Part shown: positions 1 to 64,000 of the stretch, piece by piece
Layout of the letters: each line of letters opens with the position of its first letter
Numbering within the stretch: position 1 is the stretch's first letter
NCBI GenBank assembly: GCA_026545225.1
Contig: CM048846.1
Span: 38,761,501 to 38,825,500, forward strand
Direction: 5' to 3'
From: Cornus controversa
Taxonomy: Eukaryota > Streptophyta > Magnoliopsida > Cornales > Cornaceae
Length of the DNA stretch: 64,000 nt
Made by a program: the position numbers and the translations under genes
Notes under the pieces: generated by a model
The model's database searches: none
What the model saw: the letters and a program-made list of their open reading frames with translations, nothing else
Told to the model about the DNA's origin: nothing

Positions 1-700
1 TCACTTTTTTAGGCATATATTTTCTCACCTTTCACACATTTAAAGTACTTTTCACACATTTAAAGTTTTTTCACACATTTAAAGAACTTTTACACATACG
101 TAAAACAAAAACTTTTTTATGTTCTTTATATCCATTTTTTTTTTGGAACTTTTAGACTTATTTGAAGGACGTATTTGCACAAAAAAAATCATAAAAATTT
201 ATATTTACATTTTTTAGTCTCATTTTTCCTTATTTCTACACTTTTAAAATAATTTTCACACATTTAAAGTACTTTTTCACACATTTAACGTACTTTTCGA
301 CACACTTAAAACAAATACTATTTTACGTTTTTTCTGTCCAGTTTTTGTAAGAATTCTTAGCCTTATTTGAAGGATGTACTTGAACAAAAGAATCATAATA
401 ATATGTATTCACATTTTTAACCACATTTTTTCCCACTTTTCTCTCATTTAAAGTACTTTTACACACACTTAAAACTAATACTTTTTTGTATCTGTTTCTC
501 CAAATTTTTTAACTTTTTGCCTTATTTGAAAGATGTATTATCACAAAATAATCATAAAAATAAATATTCACGTTTTTAAGGTCATTTTTTCTCACCTTGC
601 ACACATTTAAAGTATTTTTCACACATTTAAAGTACTTTTACACATACTTAAAACAAATACTTTTTTAGGTTCTTTCTATCCAAATTTTTTTAGAACTCTT
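1..700. repeat. Satellite array, A/B/C monomers (left edge)
   Basis: The window opens inside the array. Four TTTAAA or TTTAAA-like cores lie at 39, 59, 78 and 99, which shows the 20-bp sub-repeat clearly. The conserved tag TTATTTGA starts at 158, 363, 522 and 705, giving monomers of 205, 159 and 183 bp. Monomers follow in the order C, A, B, C. Bases are skewed: in 1-60 I count about 27 T, 16 A, 14 C and 3 G, so the + strand is pyrimidine-rich and G-poor. There is no gene. Short open frames here arise from the low-complexity T-rich repeat. Confidence 0.9.
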
Positions 701-2960
701 AGACTTATTTGAAAGATGTATTTGCACACAAAAAATCATAAAACTTTATATTCACATTTTTTAGTCTCATTTTTTCTCACTTTTCACACATTTAAAGTAC
801 TTTTCCACACACTTAAAACGAATCATTTTTTTTGTTTTTTCTTTCCAATATTTTTAGCAACTCTTAGCCTTATTTGAAGAATGTATTTGCACAAAAAAAT
901 CATAAAAATTTATATTCACAATTCTTAGTCTCATTTTTCCTCGCTTTTCACACTTTCAATGTAATTGACCGCACATTTAAAGTATTTTTTCACACATTTA
1001 AAATAAATATTTTTTATGTTCTTTCTCTCCAATCTCTTTTAGAACTATTAGATTTATTTGAAAGATGTATTTACACAAAAAAAATCATACAAATTTATAT
1101 TAACATTTTTTAGTCTCATTTTTCCTCACTTTCCACACATTTAAATTATTTTTCCACAAACTTAAACTAAATAATATTTTATGTTTTTTCTATCCAATTT
1201 TTTTAGCAACTTTTAACCTTATTTGAAAGATTTATTTTCACAAAAAAAATCTTAAAAATTAATATGCACATTTTTTAGGCTCATTTTTTCTCTCTTTCCA
1301 CACTTTTAAAATATTTTCCACACGTTTGAAGTACTTTTAATACATTTAAAGTACTTGTACACACACTTAAAATAATTTCTTTTTTATGTTTTTTCAATAC
1401 AATTTTTTTTGAAACTCTTAGACTTATTTGAAGGTTGTATTTGCACAAAAAAAATTCATAAAATTTTATATTTACATTTTTTAGTCTCATTTTTCCTCAC
1501 ATTTAAAGTACTTTTCCAGACAATTAAAACAAATGCTTTTTTATGTTATTTCTATCCAATTTTTTTTAGCAACTCTTAGCCTTATTTGAAGGATGTATTT
1601 GCACAAAAAAAAATCATAAAATTTATATTCACAAATTTTAGTCTCATTTTTCCTCACTTTACGTACTTTTAAAATACTTTCCACACATTTAAAGTGCTTT
1701 TTCGCACACTTAAAATAAATATCTTTTTATGTTATTTCTATCCAATTTTTTTTAGGAACTCTTAACCTTATTTGAAGGATGTATTTGTACAAAAAAATCA
1801 TAAAAATATATATTCAAATTTTTTAATCTCATTTTTTTCCACTTTTAACTCATTTAAAGTACTTTTCCACACACTAAAAAAAAATATTTTCTTATGTTTT
1901 TTCTTTCTTATTTTTTATCAACTTTTAGACTCATTTGAAATCTGTATTTGCACAAGAAAATTATAAAAAATTATATTCACATTTTTTTGACTCATTTATT
2001 CTCATTTTTCACACATTTAAAATACTTTCTCACACTTAAAACAAACACTTTTTTATGTTTTTTTTGTCCAATTTTTTTATAAACTCTTAGCCTTATTTGG
2101 AGGATGCATTTGCACAAAATAATCATAAAATATATAGTCAAATTTTTTTAATCACATTTTTTTGCTCTTTTCACTCATTTAAAGTACTTTTCCACTCACT
2201 TAAAACAAATACTTTTTAATGTTTTTTTTTTCTTATTTTTTTAGCAACTTTTAGCCTCATTTGAAATATTTATTTGCACAAAAAATTGTAAAAGTTTATA
2301 TTCACATTTTTTAGACTCATTTATTCTCAATTTTCACACTTTTAAAGAACATTTAACACATGTAAAGTACTTTTGCACATTTAAAACAAATACTTTATTA
2401 TTATTTCTTCTTTCTAATTTTCTTTCCAACTTTTGGCCTTATTTCAAGGATGTATTTTCACAAAAAAAATTCATAAAAATTAATATTCACATTTTTTAGG
2501 CTCATTTTTTCTCACCTTCCACACTTTTAAAGTACGTTCCACACATTCAAAGTAATTTTTCAAACTTTTAAAGTACATTTTCACACACTTAAAATAAATA
2601 TTTTTTATGATTTTTCTTTCCAAGTTTTTCGGCAACTCTTAGGCATATTTGAAAAATATTTTTGCACAAAACAGTAATAAAAATTTATATTCACAATATT
2701 TAGTCTCATTTTCACTCACTTTTCACGCATTTAGAAGACTGTGCACAGATTTGAAGTATTTTTCTACACACTGAAAACAAGTACTTTTTCATGTTCTTTC
2801 TGTCCAATTTTTTTTTGGAACTCTTAGACTTATTTGAAAGATGTATTTGCAAGAAAAGAATTATGAAAATTGATAATTATATTTTTAATCTCATTTTTCC
2901 TCACTTTCCACACAATTAAAATACTTTTCCACATACTTAAAACAAATATTTTTCTATGTT
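701..2960. repeat. Satellite block rich in E and F monomers, copy i
   Basis: Tags continue at 870, 1054, 1219, 1424, 1582 and 1768 (spacings 165, 184, 165, 205, 158, 186). The block holds an F monomer with the rare word ACCGCACATTTAAAG near 965. E monomers with a TTAGACTCATTTATTCTC motif follow around 1990 and 2310, and a variant with CAAGAAAAGAATTATGAAAA lies at 2850. The same succession returns at 45.5-52.4 kb (interrupted by the LTR insertion) and 55.1-58.6 kb. Positions 2271-2310 are a paralogous empty version of the LTR insertion site (TAAAAGTTTATATTC). Confidence 0.85.
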
Positions 2961-5900
2961 TTTCTATCCAATTTTTTTGGAACTCTTAGACTTATTTGAA
3001 AGATGACTTTGCATAAAAAATCATAAAAATTTATATTCACATTTTTCAGTCTCATTTTTCCTTACTTTCTACACTTTTAAAATAATTTTCACACATTTAA
3101 AATACTTTTTCACACATTTAAAGTACTTTTCGACACATTTAAAACAAATACCATTTTAAATTTTTTCTATCCAATTTTTGTAAGAATTCTTAGCCTTATT
3201 TGAAGGATGTACTTCAACAAAAAAATCATAGTAATATATATTCACATTTTTAATCACATTTTTCCCACTTTTCACTCATTTAAAGTACTTTAACACACAC
3301 TTAAAACATATATTTTTCTATGTTTTTTCTATCCAATTTTTTTGGAACTCTTAGACTTATTTGAAAGATGAATTTGCATAAAAAAATCATAAAAATTTAT
3401 ATTCTCATTTTTCAGTCTCATTTTTCCTTACTTTCTACACTTTTAAAATAATTTTCACACATTTAAAATATTTTTTCACACATTTAAAGTATATTTTTCG
3501 ACACACTTAAAACAAATACTATTTTAAATTTTTTCTATCCAATTTTTGTAAGAATTCTTAGCCTTATTTGAAGGATGTACTTGAACAAAAAAATCATAAT
3601 AATATATATTCACATTTTTAATCACATTTTTCCCGCTTTTCACTCATTTAAAGTACTTTTACACACACTTTAAAAATAAAACTTTTTAATGTTTTTTTTT
3701 TCAATTTTATTAACTTTTAGCCTTATTTGAAGGATGTATTATCACAAAAAATCATAAAAATTAATATTCACAATTTTAGGCTCATATTTTCTCACCTTTC
3801 ACACATTTAAAGTATTTTTCACACATTTAAAGCTTTTCAGACATTTAAATTACTTTTACACATACTTAAAATAAATACTTTTTTATGTTTTTTTTTCTAA
3901 ATTTTTTAACATTTAGCCTTATTTGAAGGATGTATTATTAAAAAAAAAATCATAAAAAATAATATTCACTTTTTTAGGCTTATATTTTCTCACATTTCAC
4001 ACATTTAAAGTACTTTTCACACATTTAAAGAACTTTTACACATACGTAAAACAAATACTTTTTTAAGTTCTTTCTATCCAATTTTTTTTGCAACTTTTAG
4101 ACTTATTTGAAAGATTTATTTGCACAAAAAGAATCATAAAAATTTATATTCACATTTTTTTATCTCATTTTTTCTCACTTTTCACACATTTAAAGTAATT
4201 TTCCACACACATAAAACAAATAATTTTTTATGTTTTTTCTAACCAATTTTTTTAGAACCTCTTAGCCTTATTTGAAAAATGTATTTGCACAAAAAAATCA
4301 TAAAAATTTATATTCACAATTAGTCTCATTTTTCCTCACTTTCCACACTTTTAAAATATTTTCACACACATTTACAGCGCTTTTCGACAAACTTAAAACA
4401 AATACTTTTTTATTTTCTTTCTATCCAATTTTTTTTCGAACTCTACCTATTTGAAGGACGCATTTGCACAAACAAAATCATAAAAATTTATATTCACATT
4501 TTTTAGTCTCATTTTTCCTTACTTTCTACACTTTTAAAATAATTTTCACACATTTAAAGTACATTTCCACACATTTAAAGTACTTTTCGACACACTTAAA
4601 ATAAATACTATTTAATGTTTTTTCTGTCCAATTTTGTAAGAATTCTTAGCCTTATTTGAAGGATGTACTTGAACAAAAAAATCATAATAATATATATTCA
4701 CATTTTTAATCATATTTTTCCCACTTTTAACTCATTTAAAGTACTTTTACACACACATAAAACAAAATCTTTTTTATGTTTTTTTTTTGCAAATTTTTTA
4801 ACTTTTAGCCTTATTTGAAGGATGTATTATCACAAAAAAATAATAAAAATTAATATTCACTTTTTTAGGCTTATATTTTATCACCTTTCACACATTTAAA
4901 GTACTTTTCACATATTAAAAGTTTTTTCACACATTTAAAGAACTTTTACACAAACGTAAAACAAATATTTTTTTATGTTCTTTCTATCCAATTTTTTTTG
5001 GAACTTTTAGACTTATTTAGTGGACGTATTTTCACAAAAAAATCATAAAAATATATTTTCAAATTTTTTAATCTCATTTTTTTCCACTTTTAACTCATTT
5101 AAATTACTTTTCTACACACTTAAAAAAATTATTTTCTTATATTTTTTCTTTCTTATTTTTTATTAAGTTTTAGCCTCATTTGAAAGATGTATTTGCACAA
5201 GAAAATTATAAAAAATTATATTCACATTTTTTAGACTCATTTACTCTCATTTTCCACACATTTAAAATACTTTCTCACACTTAAAACAAAAACTTTTTAA
5301 TGTGTTTTTTTTCAAATTTATTTACTTTTAGCCTTTTTTGAAGTATGTATTATCACAAAAAAATCATAAAAATTAATATTCACTATTTTAGGCTCATATT
5401 TTCTCACCTTTCACACATTTAAAGTATTTTCCACACATTTAAAGTTTTTTGACACATTTAAAGTACTTTTACACATACTTAAAACAAATACTTTTTTACT
5501 TTTTTTTTTTCTAAATTTTTTAACTTTTAGCCTTATTTGAAGGATGTATTATCACAAAAAAAAATCATAAAAATTAATATTCACTTTTTTAGGCTTATAT
5601 TTTCTCAACATTCACACACGTAAAGTACTTTTCACACATTTAAAGAACTTTTACACGTACGTAAAACAAATACTTTTTTATGTTCTTTCCATCCAATTTT
5701 TTTTTGAACTTTTAGACTTATTTGAAGGACGTATTTGCACAAATAAAATCATAAAAATTTATATTCACATTTCTTAGTCTCATTTTTCTTTACTTTCTAC
5801 ACTTTTAAAATAATTTTCACACATTTAAAGTATTTTTCGACCCACTTAAAACAAATACTATTTTACGTTTTTTCTGTCCAATTTTTGTAAGAATTCTTAG

Positions 5901-7300
5901 CTTCATTTGAAGAATGTATTTGAACAAAAAAATTATAATAATATATATTCACATTTTTAATCAGATTTTTTCCACTTTTCACTCATTTAAAGTACTTTTA
6001 TGCACACTTAAACCAAAAACTTTTTAACATTTTTTTTTCCAAATTTATTAACTTTTTGCCTTACTTGAAGAATGTATTCTCACAAAAAAATCATAAAAAT
6101 TAATATTCACTACTTTAGTCTCATATTTTCTCACCTTTCACAAGTTTAAAGTATTTTTCACACATTTAAAGTTTTTTCAAAAATTTAAAGTACTTTTACA
6201 CATACTTAAAACAAATACTTTTTTATGTTTTTTTTTCTAAATTTTTTAACTTTTAGCCTTATTTGAAGGATGTATTATCACAAAAAATATCATAAAAATT
6301 AATATTCACTTTTTTAGGCTTATATTTCCTCAACTTTCACACATTTAAAGTAGTTTTCACACATTTAAAGTTTTTTCACACATTTAAAGAACTTTTACAC
6401 ATACGTAAAACAAATACTTTTTTATGTTCTTTCCATCCAATTTTTTTTTGAACTTTTAGACTTATTTGAAGGACGTATTTTCACAAATAAAATCATAAAA
6501 GTTTATATTCACATTTCTTAGTCTCATTTTTCCTTACTTTCTAGACTTGTAAAATAATTTTTACACATTTAAAATACTTTTTCACACATTTAAAGTACTT
6601 TTTGACGCACTTAAAACAAATACTATTTAATGTTTTTTCTGTCCAATTTTTGTAAGAATTCTTAGCCTTATTTGAAGGATGTACTTGAACAAAAATATCA
6701 TAATAATATATATTCACATTTTTAATAACATTTTTTCCACTTTTCACTCTTTTAAAGTACTTTCACACACACTTAAAACAAAAACTTTTTAATATTTTAT
6801 TCCAAATTTATTAACTTTTAGCCTTATTTGAAGGATGTATTATCACAAAAAAATCATAAAAATTAATATTCACTTTTTTAGCCTTATACTTTCTCACCTT
6901 TCACACATTTAAAGTTTTTTCACACATTTAAAAAACTTTTACACATACGTAAAACAAATACTTTTTTATGTTTTTTTTTCTAAATTTTTTAACTTTTAGC
7001 CCTATTTGAAAGATGTATTATCACAAAAAAAATCATAAAATTAATATTCACTTTTTTAGGCTTATATTTTCTCACCTTTCACACATTTAAATTACTTTTC
7101 ACACATTTAAAGAACTTTTACCCAAACATAAAACAAATACTTTTTTATGTTCTTTCTAGCCAATTTTTTTTGGAACTTTTAGATTTATTTGCACACAAAA
7201 ATTCATAAAAATTTATATTCACATTTTTTGATCTAATTTTTTCTCACTTTTCACACATTTAAAGTAATTTTCCACACACTTAAAACAAATAATTTTTTAA
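2961..7300. repeat. Satellite block, alternating A-B-C monomers
   Basis: This is a run of A (TTAGACTTATTTGAAGGACG), B (AAGAATTCTTAGCC, then GATGTACTTGAAC and CACTCATTTAAAG) and C monomers (AAATTTATTAACTTTTAGCC, then GATGTATTATCAC, ending ACATACGTAAAAC). One D-type monomer starts near 4240 (AGAACCTCTTAGCC, with TTTACAGCG at about 4370). E-like pieces lie near 5030-5290. C monomers here carry one to three sub-repeats. No gene is seen. Confidence 0.85.
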
Positions 7301-8930
7301 GTTCTTATTAACCAATTTTTTTGGAACCTCTAAGCCTGATTTGAAAAATGTATTTGCACAAACAAATCATAAAAATTTATATTCACAATTGTTAGTCTCA
7401 TTTTCCCTCACTTTCCAATCTTTTAAAATATTTTCACAGATATTTATAGCGATTTTCGACACACTTAAAAGAAATACATTTTTATGTTCTTTCTATCCAG
7501 TTTTTTTTTAAACTCTTAGACTTGTTAGAAGGACGCATTTGCACAAAAAAAATCAAAAAATTTATATTCACATTTTTTAGTCTCATTTTTCCTTACTTTC
7601 TACACTTTTAAAATAATTTTCACACATTTAAAGTACATTTTCACACATTTAAAATACTTTTCGACACACTTAAAACAAATACTATTTAATGTTTTCTCTA
7701 TCCAATTTTCTAAGAATTCTTACCCTTACTTGAAGGATGTACTTGACCAAAAAAATCATAATAATAAATACACATTTTTAATCACATTTTTCCTAGTTTC
7801 ACTCATTTAAAGTACTTTTGCACACACTTAAAACAAGCAAAAATTTATGTTTTTTTTCCAAAATTGTTAACTTTTAGCCTTATTTGAAGGATGTATTATC
7901 GCAAAAAAATAATAAAAATTAATATTCACTTTTTTAGGCTTATATTTTATCACCTTTCACGCATTTAAAGTTTTTTCACACATTTAAAGAACTTTTACAC
8001 ATACGTAAAACAAATACTTTTTTTTGTTCTTTCTATCCAATTTTTTTTGGAACTTTTAGACTTATTTGAAGGACGTATTTGCACAAAAAGATTATAAAAA
8101 ATTATATTCACACTTTTTTAGACTCATTTATTCTCATTTTTCACACATTTAAAATCCTTTCTCACATAAAACAAAAAAAATTTACTTTTTTTTTTCAAAT
8201 TTATTAACTTTTAGCCTTATTTGAAGGATTTACTATCACAAAAAAATCATAAAAATTAATATTCACTATTTTAGGCTCATATTTTCTCACCTTTCACACA
8301 TTTAAAGTACTTTTCACACATTTAAAGTTTTTTCACACATTTAAAAAAATTTTACACATACGTAAAACAAATACTTTTTTATGTTCATTCCATCCAATTT
8401 ATTTTTGGAACTTTTAGACTTATTTGAAGGACGTATTTGCACAAATAAAATCATAAAACTTTATATTCACATTTCTTAGTCTCATTTTTCCTTACTCTCT
8501 ACACTTTTAAAATAATTTTCACACATTTAAAACAAAAACTTTTTAATATTTTTTTTTCCAAATTTATTAACTTTTAGCCTTATTAGAAAGTTGTATTATC
8601 ACAAAAAAATCATAAAAATTAATATTCACTTTTTTAGGCTTATATTTTCTCATCTTTCACACATTTAAAGTTTTTTCACACATTTAAAGAACTTTTACCC
8701 ATACGTAAAACAAATACTTTGTTATGTTTTTTTTTATAAATTTTTTAACTTTTAGCCTTATTTGAATGATGTATTATCACAAAAAATATCATAAAAATTA
8801 ATATTCAATTTTTCAGGCTTATATTTTCTCAACTTGCACACATTTAAAATACTTTTCGCACATTTAATTTTTTTCACACATTGAAAGAACTTCTACACAT
8901 ACGTAAAACAAACACTTTTTTATGTTCTTT

Positions 8931-9126
8931 CCATCCAATTTTTTTTTGAACTTTTAGACTTATTTGAAGGTCGTATTTGAACAAATAAAATCATAAAAAT
9001 TTATATTCACATTTCTTAGTCTCATTTTTTCCTACTTTCTACACTTTTAAAATAATTTTCACACATTTAAAATACTTTTTCACACATTTAAAGTACTTTT
9101 CGATACACTTAAAACAAATACTATTT
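8931..9126. repeat. Representative A monomer (196 bp)
   Basis: Counted from one TATG(TT) to the next. Marks: TTAGACTTATTTGAAGGTCG (usually GGACG), CAAATAAAATCATAAAAATT, TTCTTAGTCTC, TTTCTACACTTTTAAAATAA, then two sub-repeats and TTTTCGATACACTTAAAAC (usually CGACAC). Confidence 0.8.
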
Positions 9127-9285
9127 TATGTTTTTTCTAACCAATTTTTGAAAGAATTCTTAGCCTTATTTGAAGGATGTACTTGAACAAAAAAATAATA
9201 ATAATATATTCAAATTTTTAATCACATTTTTCCCAGTTTTCACTCATTTAAACTACTTTTACACACACTTAAAAAAAAAACTTTT
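9127..9285. repeat. Representative B monomer (159 bp)
   Basis: Marks: AAGAATTCTTAGCC, GATGTACTTGAAC, AATAATAATATATTCA, TTTAATCACATTTTTCCC, and one TTCACTCATTTAAA sub-repeat with CTCA rather than CACA. It is the shortest common type and carries only one full sub-repeat. Confidence 0.8.
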
Positions 9286-9463
9286 TAATATTTTTTTTTC
9301 AAATTTATTAACTTTTAGCCATATTTGAAGGATGTATTATCACAAAAAAATCATAAAACTTAATATTCACTTTTTTAGGTTTATATTTTCTCACCTTTCA
9401 CACATTTAAAGTTTTTTCACATATTTAAAACACTTCTACACATACGTAAAACAAATACTTTTT
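9286..9463. repeat. Representative C monomer (178 bp)
   Basis: Marks: AAATTTATTAACTTTTAGCC, GATGTATTATCAC, TTAATATTCAC or TTAATATTCACT, TTTTTTAGG, and the ending ACATACGTAAAAC. It holds one to four sub-repeats in different copies, which is the main source of length variation. Confidence 0.8.
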
Positions 9464-9807
9464 TATTTATTTTTTCTAAATTTTTTAACTTTTAGCCTTA
9501 TTTGAAAGATGTATTATCACAAAAAAATTCATAAAAATTAATATTCACTTTTTTAGGCTTATATTTTCTCACCTTTCACACATTTAAATTACTTTTCACA
9601 CATTTAAAGAACTTTTACACAAACGTAAAACAAATACTTTTTTATGTTCTTTCTATCCAATTTTTTTTTTAACTTTTAGACTTATTTGAATGATTTATTT
9701 GCACAAAAAGATTCATAAAAATTTATACTCACATTTTTTGATCTAATTTTTTCTCACTTTTAACATATTTAAAGTAATTTTCCACACACTTAAAACAAAT
9801 AATTTTT

Positions 9808-9992
9808 TATATTTTTTCTAACCAATTTTATTGGAACCTCTAAACCTGATTTGAAAAATGTATTTGCACAAACAAATCATAAAAATTTATATTCACAATT
9901 CTTAGTCTCATTTTTCCTCACTTTCCAATCTTTTAAAATATTTTCACAAATATTTACAGCGATTTTCGACACACTTAAAAGAAATACTTTTT
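9808..9992. repeat. Representative D monomer (185 bp)
   Basis: Marks: CTAACCAATTTTATTGGAACC, AACCTGATTTGAAAAATG, CACAATTCTTAGTCTC, and ATATTTACAGCGATTTTCGAC in place of one sub-repeat. D monomers are the best landmark of higher-order periodicity from 7 to 33 kb. Confidence 0.8.
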
Positions 9993-49185: not shown

Positions 49186-49200
49186 TGTGACCCGAGAATT

Positions 49201-50604: not shown

Positions 50605-50702
50605 AACCTCCCCTATTTTGCACACCCTACTGGAATGAATTTTCAGAATCTATTCTCAGACTCAGCCAGTTTCTCCTACACAGTGCACTAATACACTGCA
50701 CA

Positions 50703-50750
50703 CTTAATTACATTGAAAATATTTACTTTAAGTTATTCAATGTAATTAAG
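50703..50750 (+). other. Perfect 15-bp hairpin in the LTR
   Basis: CTTAATTACATTGAA at 50703-50717 is the exact reverse complement of TTCAATGTAATTAAG at 50736-50750, with an 18-base loop between them. It is the strongest inverted repeat I found in the window. It lies about 260 bp after the TATA candidate and 24 bp before an AATAAA, a position that suggests an RNA structure near the R/U5 3'-end signal. That role is inference. Confidence 0.85.
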
Positions 50751-50773
50751 CAAAGTACCCCCCATTTGGATTC

Positions 50774-50779
50774 AATAAA
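50774..50779 (+). promoter_or_regulatory. Candidate polyadenylation signal (AATAAA) of the LTR
   Basis: AATAAA lies about 330 bp downstream of the TATA candidate and just after the 15-bp hairpin. The spacing fits an R region of roughly 300 bp. Plant signals are loose and the region is A-rich, so chance occurrence is possible. Confidence 0.35.
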
Positions 50780-51703
50780 AATAGTTTCAAAATCAAATTC
50801 TAAGTGAATCAAAATCTGATTTTTCAGTTTTAGTACAAAACGGATTTTCACAGCTTTGACATAAAGATTTATCGTGCAATATGAATGACTAAATTAAGTC
50901 ATTTGGGGCTGAAAAAAATTCATATGATCGTGATAAATCATGGGGTACAATTATCAGGACTTTTTATGTCAAGATTCATTAAAAAACTCATATTTACGTT
51001 TTTGCCCTTAGAATCCAACACTTAGCCAAATTTCTACGCTAAGTAGCCGAAACAGTAACTGTGCATGACACGGCTTTGATATAGTGATTCATTTGAGTTC
51101 AAAGCCTAAGTCAATCTATCTAAGAACCATAAATGATATTTCTAGTTCAAGTATAGGTTCTAGAATTTGTTTACTCAAGAATTGAATTTCTTCAAAACTA
51201 AACATAAGCTTGAATTAACTCAATCTCAACGAAGGCCTCCAAGATGATTCAATGAAGTTCATGGCCTAATTCTAAGTGTCCACTGAACCATGATATGATA
51301 TGAATGATATGCATTGGTCCTAAGGTCCACTAAGTCAATAGATGAGCTTTCAAAAGAAGTTACTTCATAAATAACTTTACATTAAATCTAGCACTCACCC
51401 AAGACTAGCCTACCCAAGTCTTTTGATCTTCAAATCTTTAAGCTTTTGGGTTCCTTCATCATATGGCATGGATTCACTTGAACTTCGCCATTGATCTTGA
51501 TTATTGATCTTTGAGTTCCATAATCATGTGGCTTCATGTATCTTCTTGTAATTTATTTTGAAGTTCAATGCCTTTAAGATACTTGAGATAATATGGTATT
51601 TTATAAACTGCACACTCAAGTAAACTTATTAAATCTACACTACAATAGGTTGTTATCATCAAAATCACCCAAGTAACATAGGGTTGAAACATTGAGGTCA
51701 ACA

Positions 51704-51708
51704 AAAAG
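51704..51708. repeat. Target-site duplication, right copy (AAAAG)
   Basis: AAAAG directly follows the CA end of the LTR and matches 49181-49185. The following TTTATATTCACATTTTTTAG continues the same satellite monomer that was interrupted on the left. Confidence 0.92.
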
Positions 51709-54700
51709 TTTATATTCACATTTTTTAGACTCATTTATTCTCAATTTTCACACTTTTAAAGAACTTTTAACACATTTAAAGTACTTTTGCACACTTAAAA
51801 CAAATACTTTATTATGTTTTTTTTTTCTAATTTTCTTAACAACTTTTAGCCTTGTTTGACTGATGTATTTTCACAAAAAAATTAATATTCACATTTTTCA
51901 GCCTCATTTTTTCTCACCTTCCACTCTTTTAAAGTACGTTCCACACATTCAAAGTAATTTTTAGACATTTAAAGTAATTTTTCACACTTTTAAAGTACAT
52001 TTTCACACACTTAAAATAAATATTTTTTATGATTTTTCTTTCCAAGTTTTTTTGAAACTCTTAGGCATATTTGAAAGATATTTTTGCACAAAACAATAAT
52101 AAAAATTTATATTCACAGTATTTAGTCTCATTTTTACTCACTTTTCACGCATTTAAAAGACTTTGCACACATTTAAAGTATTTTTCTACACACTTCAAAC
52201 AAATACTTTTTTATGTTCTTTCTGTCCAATTTTTTTTTGGAACTCTTAGACTTATTTGAAAGATGTATTTGCAAGAAAAGAATTATGAAAATTTATAATT
52301 ACATTTTTAGTCTCATTTTTCCTCACTTTCCACACAATTAAAATACTTTTCCACACACTTAAAACAAATACTTTTCTATATTTTTTCTATCCAATTTTTT
52401 TGGAACTCTTAGACATATTTGAAAGATGAATTTGCACAAAAAAATTATAAAAATTTGTATTCACATTTTTTAGTCTCATTTTTCCTAACTTTCTACACTT
52501 TTAAAAAAAAATTCACACATTTAAAGTACTTTTTCACACATTTAAAGTACTTTTTCACACATTTAAAGTACTTTTCGACACATATAAAATAAATACTATT
52601 TTATGTTTTTTCTGTCCAATTTTTGTAAGAATTTTTAGCCTTATTTGAAGGATGTACTTGAACAAAAAAGGCATAATAATATATATTCACATTTTTTATC
52701 ACATTTTTCTCACTTTTCACTCATTTAAAGTACTTTTACACACACTTAAAAAATATACTTTTTAATATTTTTTTTCCAAATTTATTAACTTTTAGCCTTA
52801 TTTGAAGGATGTATTATCACAAAAAAATCATAAAAATTAATATTCACTATTTTAGGTTCATATTTTTTCACCTTTTACACATTTAAAGTATTTTTCACAC
52901 ATTTAAAGTACTTTTACACATGCTTAAAACAAATACTTTTTATGTTTTTTTTTTCTAAATTTTTTAACTTTTAGCCTTATTTGAAGGATGTATTATCACA
53001 AAAAGAAATCATAAAAATTTGTATTCACATTTTTTAGTCTCATTTTTCCTTACTTTCTACACTTTAAAAATAATTTTTACACATTTAAAGTACTTTTTCA
53101 CACATTTAACGTACTTTTCAACACACTTAAAATGAACACTATTTTATGTTTTTTCTTTCCAATTTTTGTAAGAATTTTTAGCCTTATTTTGAAGGATGTA
53201 CTTGAACAAAAAAATCATAATAATATATATTCACATTTTTTATCACATTTTTCTCACTTTTCACTCATTTAAAGTACTTTTACACACCATTAAAACAAAA
53301 ATATTTTAATGTTTTTTTTTTCAAATTTATTAACTTTTAGCCTTCTTTGAAAGATGTATTATCACAAAAAAATCATAAAAATTAATATTCACTATTTCAG
53401 GCTCATATTTTCACACATTTAAAGTACTTTTACACATACTTAAAACAAATACTTCTTTATGTTTTTTTTTTCTAAATTTTTTAAATTTTAGCCATATTTG
53501 AAGGATGTATCACAAAAAAAAAAATCATAAAAATTTATATTCACATTTTTTAGTCTCATTTTTCCTTACTTTCTACACTTTTAAAATAATTTTCACACAT
53601 TTAAAGAAATTTTTCACACATTTAACGTACTTTTCGACACTTTTAAAATGAATACTATTTTATGTTTTTTCTGTCCAATCTTTGTAAGAATTTTTAGCCT
53701 TATTTGAAGGATGTACTTGAACAAAAAAATCATAATAATATATATTCACATTTTTTATCACATTTTTCCCACTTTTTACTCATTTGAAGTACTTTTACAC
53801 ACTTAAAACAAAAACTTTTTAATGTTTTTTTTTCCAAATTTATTAACTTTTAGCCTTATTTGAAGGATGTATTATCATAAAAAAATCATAAAAATTAATA
53901 TTCACTATTTCAAGCTCATATTTTCTCACCTTTCACACATTTAAACTATTTTTCACACATTTAATGTGCTTTTACACATACTTAAAACAAATACTTCTTT
54001 ATGTTTTTTTTTCTAAATTTTTTAAATTTTAGCCTTATTTGAAGGATGCATTATCACAAAAAAAAATCATAAAAATTTACATTGACATTTTTTAGTCTCA
54101 TTTTTCCTTACTTTCTACACCTTTAAAATAATTTTCACACATTTAACGTACTTTTCGACACACTTAAAATGAATACTATTTTATGTTTTTTCTATCCAAT
54201 TTTTGAAAGAATTTTTAGCCTTATTTGAAGGATGTACTTGAACAAAAAAATCATAATAATATATATTCACATTTTTTATCACATTTTTCCCACTTTTCAC
54301 TCATTTGAAGTACTTTTACACACACTTAAAACAAAAACTTTTTAATGTTTTTTTTTCCAAATTTATTAACTTTTAGCCTTATTTGAAGGATGTATTATCA
54401 TAAAAAAATCATAAAAATTAATATTCACTATTTCAAGCTCATATTTTCTCACCTTTCACACATTTAAACTATTTTTCACACATTTAAAGTACTTTTACAC
54501 ATACTTAAAACAAATACTTCTTTATGTTTTTTTTTTAATTTTAGCCTTATTTGAAGGATGTATTATCACAAAAAAATCATAAAAATTTATATTCACATTT
54601 TTTAGTCTCATTTTTCCTTACTTTCTACACCTTTAAAATAATTTTCACACATTTAAAGTTCTTTTTCACACATTTAACGTACTTTTCGACACACTTAAAA

Positions 54701-55100
54701 CGAATACTATTTTATGATTTTTCTGTCGAGCTTTTGTAAGAATTCTTAGCCTTATTTGAAGGATGTACTTGACCAAAAGAATCACGATAATATATATTCA
54801 CATTTTTTAATCACATTTTTTTCCACTTTTCACTCATTTAAAGTACTTTTACACACACTTAAAACAAATACTTTTTTATATTTGTTTTTCCAATTTTTTT
54901 AACTTTTAGCCTTATTTGAAGGAATATTATCACAAAAAAATCATAAAAATTAATATTCACTATTTTAGGCTCATATTTTCTCACCTTTCACACATTTAAA
55001 ATATTTTCCACACATTTAAAGTACTTTTACACATACTTAAAACAAATACTTTTTTTATGTTCTTTTTATCCAATTTTTTTTGGAAGTCTTAGACTTATTT
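51709..55100. repeat. Satellite block right of the LTR: end of E/F copy ii, then A/B/C units
   Basis: The first part, to about 52440, completes the interrupted E/F block. CAAGAAAAG at 52272 corresponds to about 2851 and 58382. Then come three closely similar A-B-C runs: the TTTTTAGCC variant of B appears near 52630, 53174 and 53692, and again near 54205, about 0.5-0.55 kb apart. The words TTTAACGTACTTTTC and CAAATACTTCTTTATG are typical of this stretch. No gene is seen. Confidence 0.8.
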
Positions 55101-55199
55101 GAAAGATGTATTTGCACAAAAAATATCATAAAAATTTATATCCACATTTTTTGGTCTCTTTTTTTCTCACTTTTCACACATTTAAAACATATAATTTTT

Positions 55200-55385
55200 T
55201 ATATTTTTTTTTAACAAATTTTTTTAGAAGCTCTTTGCCTTATTTGAAAAATGTATTTACCCAAAAAAAATCATAAAAATTTATATTCACAATTCTTAGT
55301 CTTATTTTTCCTCGCTTTTCACACTTTCGATGTAATTTACCGCACATTTGAAGTACTTTTCCACACATTTAAAATAAATTCATTT
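55200..55385. repeat. Representative F monomer (186 bp)
   Basis: Marks: AGAAGCTCTTTGCC, CACAATTCTTAGTCTTATTT, TCGCTTTTCACACTTTCGAT, and TTTACCGCACATTTGAAGTAC. The ACCGCACA word occurs only in this type and links blocks at about 1, 47.9, 55.3, 56.2, 57.9 and 63.3 kb. Confidence 0.75.
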
Positions 55386-57092
55386 TATATTTTTTCTCTC
55401 CAATCTTTTTTAAAACTCTTACATTTATTTGAACGATGTATTTGCACAAAAAAAATCATACAAATTTATATTCACATTTTTTAGTCTCATTTTACTCCCT
55501 TTCAACACATTTAAATTATTTTCCACAAACTTAAACTAAAAAATATTTTATGTTTTTTCTATCCAATTTTTTTAGCAACTTTTAACCTTATTTGAAAGAT
55601 GTATTTTCACAAAAAAAAATCTTAAAAATTAATATACACATTTTCTCTCTCTTTCCACTTTTTTAAAATATTTTTCACACATTTAAAGTACTTTTAGTAT
55701 ATTTAAAGTACTTTTACACACACTTAAAACAAATACTTTTTTATTTTTTTTCTATACAATTTTTTTTTAAACGCTTAGACTTATTTGAAGGTTGTAATTG
55801 CACAAAAAAAATCATAAAAGCTTATATTTACATTTTTTAGTCTCATTTTTTCTCACTTTTCACACATTTAAAGTACTTTTCAACACAATTAAAACAAATA
55901 CTTTTTTATGTTATTTCTATCCAATTTTTTTTGGCAACTCTTAGCCTTATTTGAAGGATGTATTTGCACAGGAAAAATCATAAAAATTTATATTCACAAA
56001 TTTTAGTCTCATTTTTCCACACTTTACGTTTAAAATATCTTCCACACATTTAAAGTGCTTTTTCGCACATTAGAAACAAATATATTTTTATGTTATTTCT
56101 ATCCAATTTTTTTAGGAACTCTTAGCCTTATTTGAATAATGTATTTGCACAAAAAAATCATAAAAATTTATATTCACAATTCTTAGTCTCATTTTTCCTC
56201 GCTTTTCACAATTTCAATGTAATTTATCGCACATTTAAAATACTTTTCCACACATTTAAAATAAATACTTTTTATGTTCTCTCTCTCCAATCTCTTTTAG
56301 AACTCTTAGATTTATTTGAAGAATGTAATTGCACAAAAAAATCATAAAAATTTATATTCACACTTTCTAGTCTCATTTTTCCTCACTTTTCACACATTTA
56401 AATTATTTTTCCCCAAACTTAAACTAAATAATATTTTATGTTTTTTCTATCCAATTTTTTTAGCGACTTTTAACCTTCTTTGAAAGATGTATTTTCACAA
56501 AAACAATCTTAAAAAATAATATACACATTTTTTAGGCTCATTTAAAGTACTTTTACACACACTTAAAACAAATACTTTTTTTTATGTTTTTTCTATACAA
56601 TTTTTTTGGAAACTCTTAGACTTATTTGAAGGTTGTATTTGCACAAAAAATCATAAAATTTTATATTTACATTTTTTAGTCTCATTTTTCCTCACTTTTC
56701 ACACATTTAAAGTACTTTTCCATACAATTAAAACAAATACTTTTTTATGTTATTTCTATCCAATTTTTTTTGCAACTCTTAGCCATATTTAAAGATTGTA
56801 TTGGTACAAAAAAATCATAAAAATTTATATTCACAAATTTTAGTCTCATTTTTCCTCACTTTACGTACTTTTAAAATACTTTCCACACATTTAAAATGCT
56901 TTTTCTCACACTTAAAACAAATATATTTTTATGTTATTTCTATCCAATTCTTTTTAGAACTCTTAACCTTATTTGAAGGATGTATTTTTACAAAAAAATC
57001 ATAAAAATATGTATTCAAAATTTTTAATCTCATTTTTTTCCACTTTTAACTCATTTAAAGTACTTTTCCACACACTTAAAAAAACTATTTTT

Positions 57093-57252
57093 TATCTTTT
57101 CTCTTTCTTATTTTTTATCAACTTTTAGCCTCAGTTGAAAGATGTATTTGAACAACAAATTATAAAAAATTATATTCACATTTTTTAGACTCATTTTTTC
57201 TCATTTTCCACACATTTAAAATACTTTCTCACACTTAAAACAAATACTTATT
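57093..57252. repeat. Representative E monomer (160 bp)
   Basis: Marks: TCTTATTTTTTATCAAC, TTTTAGCCTCAGTTGAAAG (usually CATTTG), AAATTATAAAAAATTATATTC, and TTAGACTCATTTTTTCTC. It has a single CACACATTTAAAATAC sub-repeat and the ending TCTCACACTTAAAAC. Confidence 0.75.
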
Positions 57253-58560
57253 TATATTTTTTTTGTCCAATTTTTTTATGAACTCTTAGAATTATTTGAA
57301 GGATTTATTTGCACAAAATAATAATAAAAATATATATTCAAAATTTTTAATCACATTTTTTCCACTTTTCAGTCTTTTAAAGTACTTTTCCACACACTTA
57401 AAACAAATACTTTTTAATGTTTTTTTTTCTTATTTTTTTAGCAACTTTTAGCCTCATTTGAAAGATTTATTTGCACAAAAATAATAAAAGTTTATATTCA
57501 CATTTTTTAGACTCATTTATTCTCAATTTTCACACTTTTAAAGAACTTTTAACACATTTAAAGTACTTTTGCACTCTTAAAACAAATACTTTATTATGTT
57601 TTTTTTTTCTAATTTTCTCAACAACTTTTAGCCTTATTTGAATGATGTATTTTCACAAAAAAATCATAAAAATTTATATTCACACTTTTTAGTCTCATTT
57701 TTTCTCACTTTTCACACATTTAAAGTATTTTTCCAAACACTTAAAACAAATAATTTTTAATATTTTTTCTTTCCAATTTTTTTACCAATTCTTAGCCTGA
57801 TTTGAAGAATGTATTTGCACAAAAAAATCATCAAAATTTATATTCACAATTCTTAGTCTCATTTTTCCTCGCATTTCACACTTTCAATTAAATTACCGCA
57901 CATTTAAAGTACTTTACACACTTAAAACAAATACTTTATAATGTCTTTTTCTTTTTGATGTTCTTAACAACTTTTAGCCTTATTTGAAGGATGTATTTTC
58001 ACAAAAAAGTCATAAAAATTACTATTCACATTTTTTAGGCTCATTTTTTCTCACCTTCCACACTTTAAAATACGTTCCAAACATTCAAAGTAATATTTAG
58101 ACATTTAAAGTAATTTTTCACACTTTTAAAGTGCATTTTCTCACACTTAAAATAAATGTTTTTTATGATTTTTCATTCCAAGTTTTTTTGGAACTCTAAG
58201 GCATATTTGAAAGATATTTTTGCACAAAACAATAATAAAAATTTCTATTCATACAATTTAGTCTCATATTTATTCACTTTTCACACATTTAAAAGACTTT
58301 GCACACATTTAAAGTATTTTTATGTTTTTTCTGTCCAATTTTTTTTTTGGAAATGTTAGACTTATTTGAAATATGTATTTGCAAGAAAAGAATTATGAAA
58401 ATTTATAATTACATTTTTAGTCTCATTTTTCCTCACTTTCCACACAATTAAAATACTTTTCCACACACTTAAAATGAATATTTTTCTATATTTTTTCTAT
58501 CCAATCTTTTTGGAACTCTTAGACTTATTTGAAAGATGAATTTGCACAAAAAAATCATAC

Positions 58561-61500
58561 ACTTTTAAAATAATTTTCACACATTTAAAGTACATTTTTC
58601 CACACAGTTAAAACAAATACTATTTTAAGTTTTTTCTGTACAATTTTTGTAAGAATTATTAGCCATATTTGAAGGATGTATTTGAAAAAAAATATCATAA
58701 TAATATATATTCACATTTTTAATCAGATTTTTCCACTTTTCACTCATTTAAAGTACTTTTACACACACCTAGAACAAAAACTTTTTTATGTTTTTTTTTT
58801 TCCAAATTTATTAACTTTTAGCCTTATTTGAAGGACATATTATCACAAAAAAATCATAAAAATAAGTATTCACTTTTTTAGGCTCATATTTTCTCACCTT
58901 TCACACATTTCAAATACTTTTCACATATTTAAATTTTGTTCACACATTTAAAGTACTTTTACACATACTTAAAACAAATACTTTTTTATGTTTTTTTTTT
59001 TCCAAATTTTTAACTTTTAGCCTTATTTGAAGGACGTATTATCACAAGAAAATCATAAAAATTAATATTCACTTTTTTAGGCTCAGATTTTCTCACCTTT
59101 CACACAATCAAAGTAATTTTTACACATTTAAAGTTTTTTCACACATTTAAAGAATTTTAACATACGTAAAACAAATATTATTTTATGTTTTTTCTGTCCA
59201 ATTTTTGTAAGAATTCTTAGCCTTATTTGAATGATGTACATGAAACAAAAATCATAATAATATATATTCTCATTTTTAATCACATTCTTTCCACTTTTCA
59301 CTCATTTAAACTACTTTTGCACAGACTGAAAACAAAAACTTTTTTATGTTTTTTTTCCAAATTTATTAACTTTTAGCGTTATTTGAAGGATGTATTATCA
59401 CAAAAAAATCATAAAAATTAATATTCACTTTTTTAGGCACATATCTTGTCACATTTCACACATTTAAAGTACTTTTCACACATTTAAAGTACTTTTACAC
59501 ATACTTAAAACAAATACTTTTTTATGTTTCTTTTTCCAAATTTTTTAACTTTTGGCCTTATTTGAGGGATGTATTATCACAAGCAAATCATAAAAACTAA
59601 TATTTACTTTTTTAGGCTCATATTTTCTCACCTTTCACACATTTAAAATAATTTTCACACATTCAAAGTTTTTTCACATATTTAAAGAACTTTTACACAT
59701 ACGTAAAACAAATACAATTTTATGATTTTTATGTCCAATTTTTGTAAGAATTCTTAGCCCTATTTGAAGGATGTACTTGAGCAAAAAAATCACATAATAT
59801 ATATTCACATTTTTCCCACTTTTCACTCATTTAAAGTACTTTTACACACACTTGAAACGAATAACTTTCTATATTTTTTCTAACCAATTTTTTAAACAAC
59901 ACTTAGCCGTATTTGAATAATGTGTTTGCACAAACAAAATCATAAAAATTTATTTTCACAATTTCTTAGTCTCATTTTTCCTCACTTTCCACACTTTGAA
60001 AGTATTTTCACACACATTTACAGCGTTTTTCGACACATTTAAAACAAATACCATTTTATGTTTTTTCTGTCTAATTTTTGTAAGAATTCTTAGCCTTATT
60101 TGAACGATGTACTTGAACAAAAAAATTATAATAATATATATTCACATTTTTAATCACATTTTTCCCACTTTTTACTCATTTAAAGTACTTTTACACACAC
60201 TTAAAAGAAAAACTTTTTTATGTTTTTTTTTCCAAATTTATTAACTTCTAGCCTTATCTGAAGGATGTATTATCATAAAAAAAATCATAAAAATTAATAT
60301 TCACTTTTTTAGGCTCAAATTTTCTCACCTTTCACACATTTAAAGTAATTTTCGCACATTTAAAGTTTTTTCACACATTTAAAAACTTTTACACATACGT
60401 AAAATAAATACTATTTTATGTTTTTTCTGTCCAATTTTTGTAAGAATTCTTAGCCTTATTTGAATGATGTACATGAAACAAAAATCATAATAATATATAT
60501 TCTCATTTTTAATCACATATTTTCCACTTTTCACTCATTTAAAATACTTTTGCACACACTTAAAACAAAAACTTTTTTATGTTTTTTTTTCCAAATTTAT
60601 TAACTTTTTGCGTTATTTGAAGGATGTATTATCACAAAAAAATCATAAAAATTAATATTCACTTTTTTAGGCTCATATCTTGTCACATTTCACACATTTC
60701 AAGTACTTTTCATACATTTAAAGTACTTTTACACATACTTAAAACAAATACTTTTTTATATTTTTTTTTTCAAATTTTTTAACTTTTAGCCTTATTTGAG
60801 GGATGTATTATCACAAGCAAATCATAAAAATTAATATTTACTTTTTTAGGCTCATATTTTCTCACCTTTCACACATTTAAAATAATTTTCACACATTTAA
60901 AGTTTTTTCACATATTTAAAGAACTTTTACACATACATAAAACAAATACTATTTTATGATTTTTATGTCCAATTTTTGTAAGAATGCTTAGCCCTATTTG
61001 AAGGATGTACTTGAGCAAAAAAATCATATAATATATATTCACATTTTTCCCACTTTTCACGTATTTAAAGTACTTTTACACACACTTGAAACGAATAACT
61101 TTTTATATTTTTTCTAACCAATTTTTTAAACAACACTTAGCCTTATTTGAATAATGTGTCTGCACAAACAAAATCATAAAAATTTATTTTCACAATTTCT
61201 TAGTCTCATTTTTCCTCACTTTCCACACTTTGAAAGTATTTTCACACTCATTTACAGCGTTTTTCGACACATTTAAAACAAATACTATTTTATGTTTTTT
61301 CTGTCTAATTTTTTTAAGAATTCTTAGCCTTATTTGAACGATGTACTTGAACAAAAAAATTATAATAATATATATTCACATTTTTCCCACTTTTCACTCA
61401 TTTAAAGTACTTTTACACACACTTAAAAGAAAAACTTTTTTATGTTTTTTTTTCCAAATTTTTTAACTTTTAGCCTTATTTTAATGATGTATTATCACAA

Positions 61501-63000
61501 AAAAAATAATAAAAATTAATATTCACTTTTTTAGGCTCATATTTTCTCACCTTTCACACATTTAAAGTAATTTTCGCACATTTAAAGTTTTTTCACACAT
61601 TTAAAAACTTTTACACATACGTAAAACAATACTATTTTATGTTTTTTCTGTCCAATTTTTGTAAGAATTCTTAGCCTTATTTGAATGATGTACATGAAAC
61701 AAAAATCATAATAATATATATTCTCATTTTTAATCACATTTTTTCCACTTTTCACTCATTTAAACTACTTTTGCACCCACTTAAAACAAAAACTTTTTTA
61801 TGTTTTTTTTTCCAAATTTTTTTAACTTTTAGCCTTATTTGAGGGATGTATTATCACAAGCAAATCATAAAAACTAATATTTACTTTTTTAGGCTCATAT
61901 TTTCTCACCTTTCACACATTTAAAATAATTTTCACACATTCAAAGTTTTTTCACATATTTAAAGAACTTTTACACATACGTAAAACAAATACTATTTTAT
62001 GATTTTTATGTCCAATTTTTGTAAGAATTCTTAGCCCTATTTGAAGGATGTACTTGAGCAAAAAAATCATATAATATATATTCACAATTTTCCCACTTTT
62101 CACTCATTTAAAGTACTTTTACACACACTTGAAACAAATAACTTTTTATATTTTTTCTAACCAATTTTTTAAATAACACTTAGCCTTATTTGAGAAATGT
62201 GTTTGCACAAACAAAATCATAAAAATTTATTTTCACAATTTCTTAGTCTCATTTTTCCTCACTTTCCACACTTTGAAAGTATTTTCACACACATTTACAC
62301 CGTTTTTCGACACATTTAAAACAAATACTATTTTATATTTTTTCTGTCTAATTTTTGTAAGAATTCTTAGCCTTATTTGAACGATGTACTTGAACAAAAA
62401 AATTATAATAATATATATTCATATTTTTATTCACATTTTTTCCACTTTTCACTCATTTAAAGTACTTTTACACACACTTAAAAGAAAAACTTTTTTATGT
62501 TTTTTTTTCCAAATTTATTAACTTTTAGCCTTATTTGATGGATGTATTATCACAAAAAAATCATAAAAATTAATATTCACTTTTTTAGGCTCATATTTTC
62601 TCACATTTCACACATTTAAAGTAATTTTCGCACATTTAAAGTTTTTTCACACATTTAAAAACTTTTACACATACGTAAAACAAATACTATTTTATGTTTT
62701 TTCTGTCCAATTTTTGTAAGAATTCTTAGCCTTATTTGAATGATGTACGTGAAACAAAAATCATAATAATATATATTCTCATTTTTAATCACATTTTTTC
62801 CACTTTTCACTAATTTAAAATACTTTTGCACACACTTAAAACAAAAAAATTTTATGTTTTTTTTTTTCCAAATTTATTAACTTTTAGCGTTATTTGAAGG
62901 ATGTATTATCACAAAACAATCATAAAAATTAATATTCACTTTTTTAGGGTCATTTTTTTTCACCTTCACACATTTAAAGTAATTTTCACACATTTAAAGC
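58561..63000. repeat. Satellite HOR of about 1.23 kb, three to four copies
   Basis: GATGTACATGAAAC begins at 59233, 60466, 61687 and (as GATGTACGTG) 62742, giving spacings of 1233, 1221 and 1055. AACAACACTTAG begins at 59895 and 61129, with a one-base variant at 62172 (1234, 1043). The third copy is shorter by one monomer, the one with TTAGCGTTATTTGAAGG found in the other copies. D-like monomers with TTTACAGCG or a variant lie near 60018, 61250 and 62294. The close similarity between copies suggests recent amplification. Confidence 0.85.
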
Positions 63001-64000
63001 ACTTTTACACATACTTAAAACAACAACCTTTTTTATAGTTCTTTCTATCCAATTTTTTTTGAAACTGTTAGACTTATTTGAAAGATGTATTTGCACAAAA
63101 AAAAGCATAAAAATTTATATTCACACTTTTTAGTCTCATTTTTTCTCACTTTTCACACATTTAAAGTACTTTTCCAAACACTTAAAACAAATAATTTTTA
63201 ATGTTTTTTCTTTCCAGTTTTTTTACCAACTCTTAGCCTTTTTTGAAGAATGTATTTGCACAAAAAAATCATCAAAATTTATATTCACAATTCTTAGTCT
63301 CATTTTTCCTCGCATTTCACACTTTCAATGTAATTTACCGCACATTTAAAGTACTTTACACACTTAAAACAAATACTTGATAATGTCTTTTTCTTTTTGA
63401 TGTTCTTAACAACTTGTAGCCTTATTTGAAGGATGTATTTTCACAAAAAAGTCATAAAAATTACTATTCACATTTTTTAGGCTCATTTTTTCTCACATTC
63501 CACACTTTAAAGTACGTTCCAAACATTCAAAGTAATATTTAGACGTTTAAAGTAATTTTTCACACTTTTAAAGTGCATTTTCTCACACTTAAAATAAATG
63601 TTTTTTATGATTTTTTCATTCCGAGTTTTTTTGGAACTCTAAGGCATATTTGAAAGATATTTTTGCACAAAACAATAACAAAAATTTCTATTCATACTAT
63701 TTAGTCTCATATTTATTCACTTTTCACACATTTAAAGTATTTTTCTACACACTTAAAACAGATACTTTTTTATGTTTTTTCTGTCCAATTTTTTTTTTTG
63801 GAACTGTTAGACTTATTTGAAATATGTATTTGCAAGAAAAGGATTATGAAAATTTATAATTACATTTTTAGTCTCATTTTTCCTCACTTTCCACACAATT
63901 AAAATACTTTTCCACACACTTAAAACAAATACTTTTCTATGTTTTTTCTATCCAATCTTTTTGGAACTCTTAGACTTATTTGAAAGATGAATTTGCACAA
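63001..64000. repeat. Satellite, copy of 57.66-58.56 kb (right edge)
   Basis: ATGTCTTTTTC at 63383 matches 57941, and AAAATAAATG at 63591 matches 58149, both at offset exactly 5442. Shared rare words include TTTTTGATGTTCTTAACAAC and GGAACTCTAAGGCATATT. The window ends inside this block, so the array continues beyond it. Confidence 0.88.

What the first reader, a model, noticed from the sequence alone, without database searches (positions are those of the whole stretch)
1..64000. Three-level satellite: 20-bp sub-repeat, 158-205-bp monomer, multi-kilobase HORs
Monomer tags TTATTTGA at 158, 363, 522, 705, 870, 1054, 1219, 1424, 1582 and 1768 give lengths of 205, 159, 183, 165, 184, 165, 205, 158 and 186. 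These fall into classes about 20 bp apart, matching gain or loss of one CACACATTTAAAG sub-repeat. A satellite whose monomer length is quantised by an internal microrepeat, and which also forms several HOR sizes, is not a family I recognise.
Basis: seen in the sequence. Interest (0 to 1): 0.75.

Follow-up and report, generated by a model that had tools for sequence, protein, structure and literature searches.

The report
Satellite array with stepwise monomer lengths
Apart from one inserted mobile element, the window is a long repeated-DNA array whose units come in stepwise lengths because each carries two, three or four copies of a 20-base block; this is a clear example of an ordinary kind of eukaryotic satellite DNA.

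Summary
The window is one head-to-tail, about 22% GC satellite: 344 monomer anchors, all on the + strand. Its one large break is a 2,518-bp solo-LTR-like insert at 49186-51703 with a 5-bp target-site duplication. Monomer lengths are quantised near 159, 182 and 203 bp because a nearly constant core is joined to a sub-repeat block of about 34, 54, 74 or rarely 95 bp. A second, 5-6-bp length difference in the core splits each class.

Length class is largely inherited with monomer type: 56 class changes on a core-only tree, against 155 with shuffled labels. In one family of 101 monomers the commonest unit words form a nested series (GTAC-GTTT-GAAC; GTTT-GAAC or GTAC-GAAC; GAAC), as expected if single units are gained or lost. 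Higher-order repeats are real (blocks 87-97% identical, against a 66% median between monomers) but irregular.

Mechanism (inferred): exchange or slippage at three nested scales in a probably centromeric or pericentromeric satellite. Each ingredient has a published precedent. Its words were not found in the paper library; species unknown, and no plant repeat database could be searched. New member of a known kind.

The parts
1..49185 (+). Satellite array, head to tail, ~22% GC; runs off the left end of the window. The last 5 bases are the left target-site duplication of the insert.
   Evidence: Profile-HMM anchors all on + strand; no inverted self-match at >=88% identity and E<=1e-50; composition
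51704..64000 (+). Continuation of the same array; runs off the right end of the window
   Evidence: the array resumes in phase after the insert
30..97 (+). Example sub-repeat block: 3.5 copies of a 19-20-bp unit TTTCACACATTTAAAGTACT
   Evidence: Tandem Repeats Finder, first row
49186..51703 (.). 2,518-bp insert TGTGA...CAACA, read as a solo LTR; longest internal direct repeat 42 bp; no Pfam match (E<=0.1) in its two listed ORFs of at least 70 aa
49181..49185 (.). Target-site duplication AAAAG, left copy
   Evidence: the related uninterrupted monomer has AAAAG once, at 2290-2294
51704..51708 (.). Target-site duplication AAAAG, right copy
34178..40245 (+). Most regular higher-order stretch: ~2.0-kb block (11 monomers) repeated in tandem
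   Evidence: 13 consecutive monomers at lag 11, mean identity 97.2%; 4,123-bp self-match at 91.2%
58935..61963 (+). Tandem 7-monomer, ~1.23-kb higher-order block
   Evidence: 9 monomers at lag 7, 95.4%; 1,814-bp self-match at 94.5%
871..2992 (+). Copy of a second, different long unit (types L E Q R M G I G U N V O), which recurs with changes at about 47.8-52.4 kb (holding the insert) and 55.2-58.5 kb and in part at 63.2-64 kb
   Evidence: Type string, type positions, 2,098-bp match 209-2295 vs 47149-49186 and 1,205-bp match 1343-2534 vs 56539-57727

Best explanation
This is a segment of a large eukaryotic satellite array, probably centromeric or pericentromeric and probably from a plant. Each monomer is a core of about 125-130 bp plus a block of ~20-bp units (CACACATTTAAAG and its spacer). 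Unequal exchange or replication slippage between the similar units sometimes adds or removes one (inferred from the nested unit words), making length variants in 20-bp steps. A separate 5-6-bp length difference in the core doubles the number of classes. Blocks of several neighbouring monomers of mixed type are then duplicated by longer-range unequal exchange or conversion (the blocks are shown, the process is inferred), so a type's length is copied with it and the array becomes a patchwork of irregular higher-order repeats. An LTR element inserted into one copy and was probably reduced to a solo LTR by recombination. Kinetochore or heterochromatin function is inferred, not shown.
For: Block lengths near 34/54/74/95. 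A family marked by its arm after the tag (signature score >=20 of 25 in 40 of 45 B, 23 of 30 D and 19 of 21 F monomers, and in 0 of 164 of types A, C, E, G, H, I) holds 101 monomers; its commonest unit words are GTAC-GTTT-GAAC (14 of 42 long), GTTT-GAAC (12) and GTAC-GAAC or TTAC-GAAC (6 and 4) of 45 middle, and GAAC (8 of 12 short), a nested series. The first unit of D's consensus begins like B's first and ends like B's second. Length class follows type: core-only clusters explain 0.34, 0.62 and 0.72 of length variance at three cut-offs (clusters of 4 or more), against shuffled maxima of 0.05, 0.09 and 0.15; 56 class changes against a mean of 155.2 in 50 shuffles. Same-ordinal units of different monomers (0.80, 0.85, 0.89 for units 1-3) are at least as alike as different ordinals within one monomer (0.79). 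Order of types: conditional entropy 1.86 bits against 3.12 (sd 0.036) in 500 shuffles. Median monomer identity 66%, best-partner median 94.5%.
Against: No chromosome context: both array ends lie outside the window, no genome is held, nothing tests CENH3 loading. Class changes are still many (at least 56 for 335 monomers on a FastTree of short, probably recombining cores, whose support I did not examine). Even at core identity >=0.97 only 33 of 40 pairs share the class, and the two largest core-only clusters at the tightest cut-off mix classes. The nested words are the commonest, not the majority: 14 of 42, 22 of 45 for the three middle words together, 8 of 12. No B monomer carries the 25-base arm signature exactly, against 11 of 30 D and 7 of 21 F.
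Confidence: 0.72

Rival explanations
1. An actively slipping microrepeat: unit number in each monomer changes fast and independently, as in a minisatellite, and the higher-order repeats came afterwards.
For: Units are 19-21 bp apart and similar; at core identity >=0.90 only 1051 of 1629 pairs share the class, against 0.339 expected at random.
Against: Class follows type; units are not homogenised inside monomers; only 5 of 338 monomers have five units and none more.
Confidence: 0.15
2. Length quanta are selected for nucleosome or helical phasing: about two helical turns per step keep rotational setting while changing linker length.
For: Steps are 20-21 bp; monomer lengths of 157-205 bp are nucleosome-sized; adjacent lengths are weakly anticorrelated (-0.19; lowest of 1000 shuffles -0.15); AT-dinucleotide power at 9.9-10.7 bp is 14.1, above all 12 Markov controls (highest 11.8), though repetition alone can raise it.
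Against: Other periods are as strong or stronger (TT 11.6 bp, AA 39.65, WW 11.6 and 12.9); the 5-6-bp core difference breaks helical phase; the anticorrelation also follows from the type order (long C is followed by short A in 29 of 37 cases).
Confidence: 0.08
3. Non-centromeric heterochromatic satellite (subtelomeric, knob or B-chromosome array) with the same evolutionary mechanics.
For: Nothing in the window shows centromere function; 0 CENP-B-box-like sites with up to 1 mismatch (0.3 expected by chance, and uninformative for plants); the insert is not shown to be a centromeric element.
Against: Nucleosome-sized AT-rich monomers with higher-order repeats are usual at centromeres (established knowledge), but not only there.
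Confidence: 0.3
4. Assembly artefact: collapsed or mis-joined repeat reads produced the irregular block order.
For: Irregular order without one period; such arrays are hard to assemble.
Against: Block copies differ by about 3-13%, enough for long reads to tell apart; the monomer and sub-repeat levels lie well within single long reads. No reads were available to check.
Confidence: 0.05

Closest known systems
Carrot CentDc centromeric satellite
   Same: Nucleosome-sized unit (~159 bp) built of short sub-repeats (four 39-40-bp monomers), described as a higher-order repeat (PMC8259371, passages read)
   Different: The 36-base CentDc probe has no match in the window with up to 3 mismatches and aligns no better than shuffled probes (28 of 60 reach its score); here the short unit is 20 bp and sits beside a long core
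Switchgrass and other grass centromere variants (A, B1, B2, C, D)
   Same: B1 and B2 differ by a 9-bp deletion, and both differ from the maize, witchgrass and foxtail millet variants by a 20-bp insertion; a 1,131-bp higher-order repeat was seen (PMC4053949, passages read)
   Different: There single reads never mixed B1 and B2; here the length classes are mixed within the array; sequences not compared
Arabidopsis CEN178 arrays
   Same: Higher-order repeats taken as pairs of similar multi-monomer blocks rather than one fixed period (definition in PMC10199239, passages read)
   Different: Recalled: CEN178 monomers are nearly uniform in length, without a 20-bp sub-repeat block; not compared here
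Human alpha satellite higher-order repeats
   Same: Diverged monomer types in recurrent order, blocks far more alike than monomers (principle and recalled)
   Different: No regular tandem period here; monomer length is not fixed near 171 bp; no CENP-B-box-like site
Chenopodium CficCl-61-40 and Petunia PSAT6 families
   Same: Short ~40-bp or 38-39-bp units combining into longer monomers, with differing lengths or variable numbers of sub-repeats (PMC6429384; PMC10587573; passages read)
   Different: Unit length; sequences not compared

Membership tests
Satellite DNA (tandem array) | Long head-to-tail array of related monomers on one strand | tested here: met
   344 anchors, all +
Higher-order repeat array | Multi-monomer blocks more alike than their monomers | tested here: met
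   Blocks 87-97% (listed runs, floor 85%, floor 88%) against a 66% monomer median
Higher-order repeat array | One block length repeated regularly over the array (alpha-satellite style) | tested here: not met
   Best-partner lags 31 (33 monomers), 11 (21), 7 (18), 9 and 33 (14 each) and others, none dominant; many block distances
Centromeric satellite | CENH3 or primary-constriction location | not testable with these tools
   Needs ChIP or FISH and a chromosome assembly; no genome held
Carrot CentDc | Sequence similarity to CentDc | tested here: not met
   (only the 36-base probe printed in PMC8259371)
Already published satellite of any species | Sequence identity | tested here: inconclusive
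   No paper text holds the seven 13-16-base words searched; plant repeat databases could not be searched, and supplements were not read
Solo LTR of an LTR retrotransposon (the insert) | TG...CA ends and a 5-bp target-site duplication | tested here: met
   TGTGA...CAACA, AAAAG on both sides, uninterrupted copy
Solo LTR of an LTR retrotransposon (the insert) | No internal region, no second LTR | tested here: met
   Longest direct repeats inside are 36-42 bp; 2 ORFs of 70 aa or more, 0 Pfam matches at E<=0.1
Solo LTR of an LTR retrotransposon (the insert) | A full element elsewhere with this LTR | not testable with these tools
   No plant collection; plasmids gave no match

The most novel reading that the evidence does not exclude
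Unit number is a functional code: monomers with 2, 3 and 4 units recur in a preferred order, so that the array presents a patterned series of linker lengths to (CENH3) nucleosomes, and selection keeps both the 20-bp step and the order.
Probability: 0.06. Interest if true: 0.75.

Novelty: new member of a known kind. Interest (0 to 1): 0.3.

Why it matters
The array records exchange at three nested scales in one stretch: unit, monomer and block. Unit number acts as a second, easily read character beside point changes, so the relative rates of short-range and long-range exchange can be measured in one satellite. That is useful for models of satellite evolution, but it overturns nothing.

Tried and rejected
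Helical phasing: other periods are as strong or stronger than ~10 bp; the WW signal at 9.9-10.7 bp is above 12 Markov controls (14.1 against at most 11.8), a control that does not allow for repetition. Left open as a weak rival. Ancient 82-bp dimer: lag 82 is the strongest lag above 21 in bases 1-48000 and the halves of a consensus monomer align (score 41; shuffle 95th percentile 43.05, with shuffles scanned at fewer phases); of four type consensuses only G beat all 60 shuffles (A 0.13, E 0.13, I 0.22). Not claimed. Carrot CentDc: rejected by sequence. Human-type CENP-B box: 0 sites. Rfam: 0 matches at gathering scores. Constant spacing of adjacent monomer pairs: pair-sum sd 24.8 against 27.6 if independent, a small effect that type order can explain. 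Species identity: viral contigs 0 matches to one 24-mer; genome contigs 1 exact 20-mer in a Crocinitomicaceae MAG, not examined; plasmids no match to the insert (query started 2 bases inside it). (length-word searches) found no papers; one search listed 15, none opened; (LTR-end words) found none. Type labels at cut 0.18 count gaps as mismatches and so are partly circular with length; the core-only tests were made for that reason. Length classes are set by length cut-offs (172, 190, 212), not by counted units; unit counts depend on the mismatch limit (compare). A stricter exact-arm version of the junction test caught only 20 monomers, of lengths 158-184 and none of the long type B; the tolerant version replaced it.
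Full report
OBSERVATION. The ten tag positions in the finding are exact, and TTATTTGA occurs 208 times. A profile HMM built from tag-centred stretches placed 344 monomer anchors over the window, all on the + strand. Distances between successive anchors are multimodal. For lengths between 140 and 215 bp a one-component Gaussian has BIC 2870.9, three components 2624.1 (means 159.2, 181.9 and 203.1) and six components 2598.4. Of 343 spacings, 24 lie under 150 or over 215 bp, one of them the insert.

WHAT SETS THE LENGTH. Each monomer divides into a core and a sub-repeat block (all counts). The part of the core after the tag is almost constant (292 of 335 values are 73-76 bp). The part before it has two modes, 50-51 and 55 bp (49-52 bp in 114, 53-57 in 221, other in 7 of 342). 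The block between is 32-35 bp in 136 of 331, 52-55 in 91, 71-75 in 85, 94-96 in 5 and other in 14. So the step is 20 bp, one sub-repeat. The second core length splits each class: mean lengths with the short and long arm are 156.6 (n=70) and 161.4 (77), 177.9 (31) and 183.6 (63), 197.8 (15) and 203.9 (73). Sub-repeat spacing is 21 bp in 330, 20 in 146 and 19 in 87 of 578.

INHERITED OR ACTIVE. Because whole-monomer clustering counts missing units as differences, I repeated the test with the block left out. Core-only clusters of four or more members explain 0.34, 0.62 and 0.72 of the length variance at three cut-offs, where 500 label shuffles never exceeded 0.05, 0.09 and 0.15. On a FastTree of the cores of 335 monomers the length class changes at least 56 times, against a mean of 155.2 in 50 shuffles. 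In 85 four-unit monomers, units at the same ordinal in different monomers are 0.80, 0.85 and 0.89 identical (ordinals 1-3); different ordinals average 0.79 within one monomer and 0.789 between monomers. Sub-repeats are thus not homogenised inside monomers, and unit number is largely copied along with the monomer. Against this, 56 changes is not few, the two largest core clusters at the tightest cut-off mix classes, and even monomers with cores at least 0.97 identical share the class in only 33 of 40 pairs.

JUNCTIONS. The consensus types B (201 bp), D (178) and F (184) begin with nearly the same 74-75 bases. A 25-base signature of that arm is matched at a score of 20 of 25 or better by 40 of 45 B, 23 of 30 D and 19 of 21 F monomers and by 0 of 164 monomers of six other types; exact matches are 0, 11 and 7. 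Over the window 101 monomers carry it: 42 long, 45 middle, 12 short and 2 longer still, classed by length. Named by the four bases after CACACATTTAAA, the commonest words are GTAC-GTTT-GAAC (14 of 42), GTTT-GAAC (12 of 45), GTAC-GAAC (6 of 45), TTAC-GAAC (4 of 45) and GAAC (8 of 12). This nested series is what loss or gain of single units gives. In consensus, the first unit of D begins like the first of B and ends like its second, as expected from an exchange inside the shared CACACATTTAAA. Direction is not decided, and many monomers carry other words.

HIGHER-ORDER STRUCTURE. The median identity of two monomers is 66%, while the best partner of each has a median of 94.5%. Runs of monomers recur as blocks: 13 monomers at lag 11 (2,023 bp apart, 97.2%), 9 at lag 7 (1,231 bp, 95.4%), 9 at lag 13 (2,325 bp, 92.6%), 7 at lag 31 (5.4 kb, 95.2%) and others (50 of 111 runs were listed). 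Self-BLAST with an 88% floor gives 45 matches of at least 700 bp, up to 4,123 bp, and no inverted match. No lag dominates: the commonest best-partner lag, 31, covers 33 monomers. The order of types is far from random (1.86 bits against 3.12). A second, distinct long unit sits at 0.9-3 kb and returns with changes at about 47.8-52.4 and 55.2-58.5 kb and in part at 63.2-64 kb. 'Several HOR sizes' is correct; 'irregular patchwork' describes it better.

INSERT. 49186-51703 (2,518 bp) begins TGTGA, ends CAACA and is flanked by AAAAG on both sides. The related copy has AAAAG once, at 2290-2294, without insert. The longest direct repeats inside it are 36-42 bp, and its two listed ORFs of 70 aa or more match no Pfam family at E<=0.1. 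I read it as a solo LTR. From memory only, its end CCCTAGAGGGGGGCGAATAGGG resembles Sirevirus-type (Ty1-copia) plant LTRs; a paper search for such words found nothing.

WHAT IT IS. The array is one satellite family grown by exchange at three scales: unit, monomer and block. The nested words and the block identities are shown; the exchange process is inferred. A centromeric or pericentromeric place is the usual one for AT-rich, nucleosome-sized satellites with higher-order repeats (established knowledge), but nothing here tests it. Plant origin is likewise inferred, from composition and the recalled LTR resemblance; no genome is held for the window.

COMPARISON WITH THE KNOWN. Carrot CentDc is a ~159-bp unit of four 39-40-bp sub-repeats (passages read); its probe does not match here. 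[quoted passage not shown] The TRASH paper treats higher-order repeats in Arabidopsis and human as pairs of similar blocks (passages read); that Arabidopsis arrays are irregular patchworks is recalled. Chenopodium and Petunia show sub-repeat-based satellites of differing length or unit number (passages read). Each feature therefore has a precedent. The combination, with three unit numbers interleaved in one array, I did not see described in what ten paper searches returned; these cover open-licence full text only, and I opened passages of five papers.

VERDICT. Real, correctly seen, and ordinary in kind: a new member of a known kind, useful as a record of exchange at different scales. Interest 0.3.

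Noticed in passing
49186-51703: Solo-LTR-like insert with 5-bp target-site duplication AAAAG inside one copy of a long unit; an uninterrupted related copy has its site at 2290-2294.
   Followed up: yes
49797-49962: Four imperfect copies of a 42-base TTGCCAAG...CTTGG...CTTCC motif (starts 26-56 bp apart) inside the insert.
   Followed up: no
1-64000: Strong strand asymmetry over the satellite: C 10122 against G 4212 in the whole window; GC skew -0.37 to -0.48 in 30 of 32 two-kilobase bins, the two exceptions holding the insert.
   Followed up: no
1-48000: Lag 82 is the strongest self-match lag above 21 bp, and the two halves of a consensus monomer align weakly: a possible ancient 82-bp dimer (beyond all shuffles only for type G of four types tested).
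   Followed up: partly
42582-42913, 45425-45683, 46168-46463, 46984-47301: Anchor spacings outside the classes (234, 97, 258, 295, 317 bp): perhaps missed anchors or truncated monomers.
   Followed up: no
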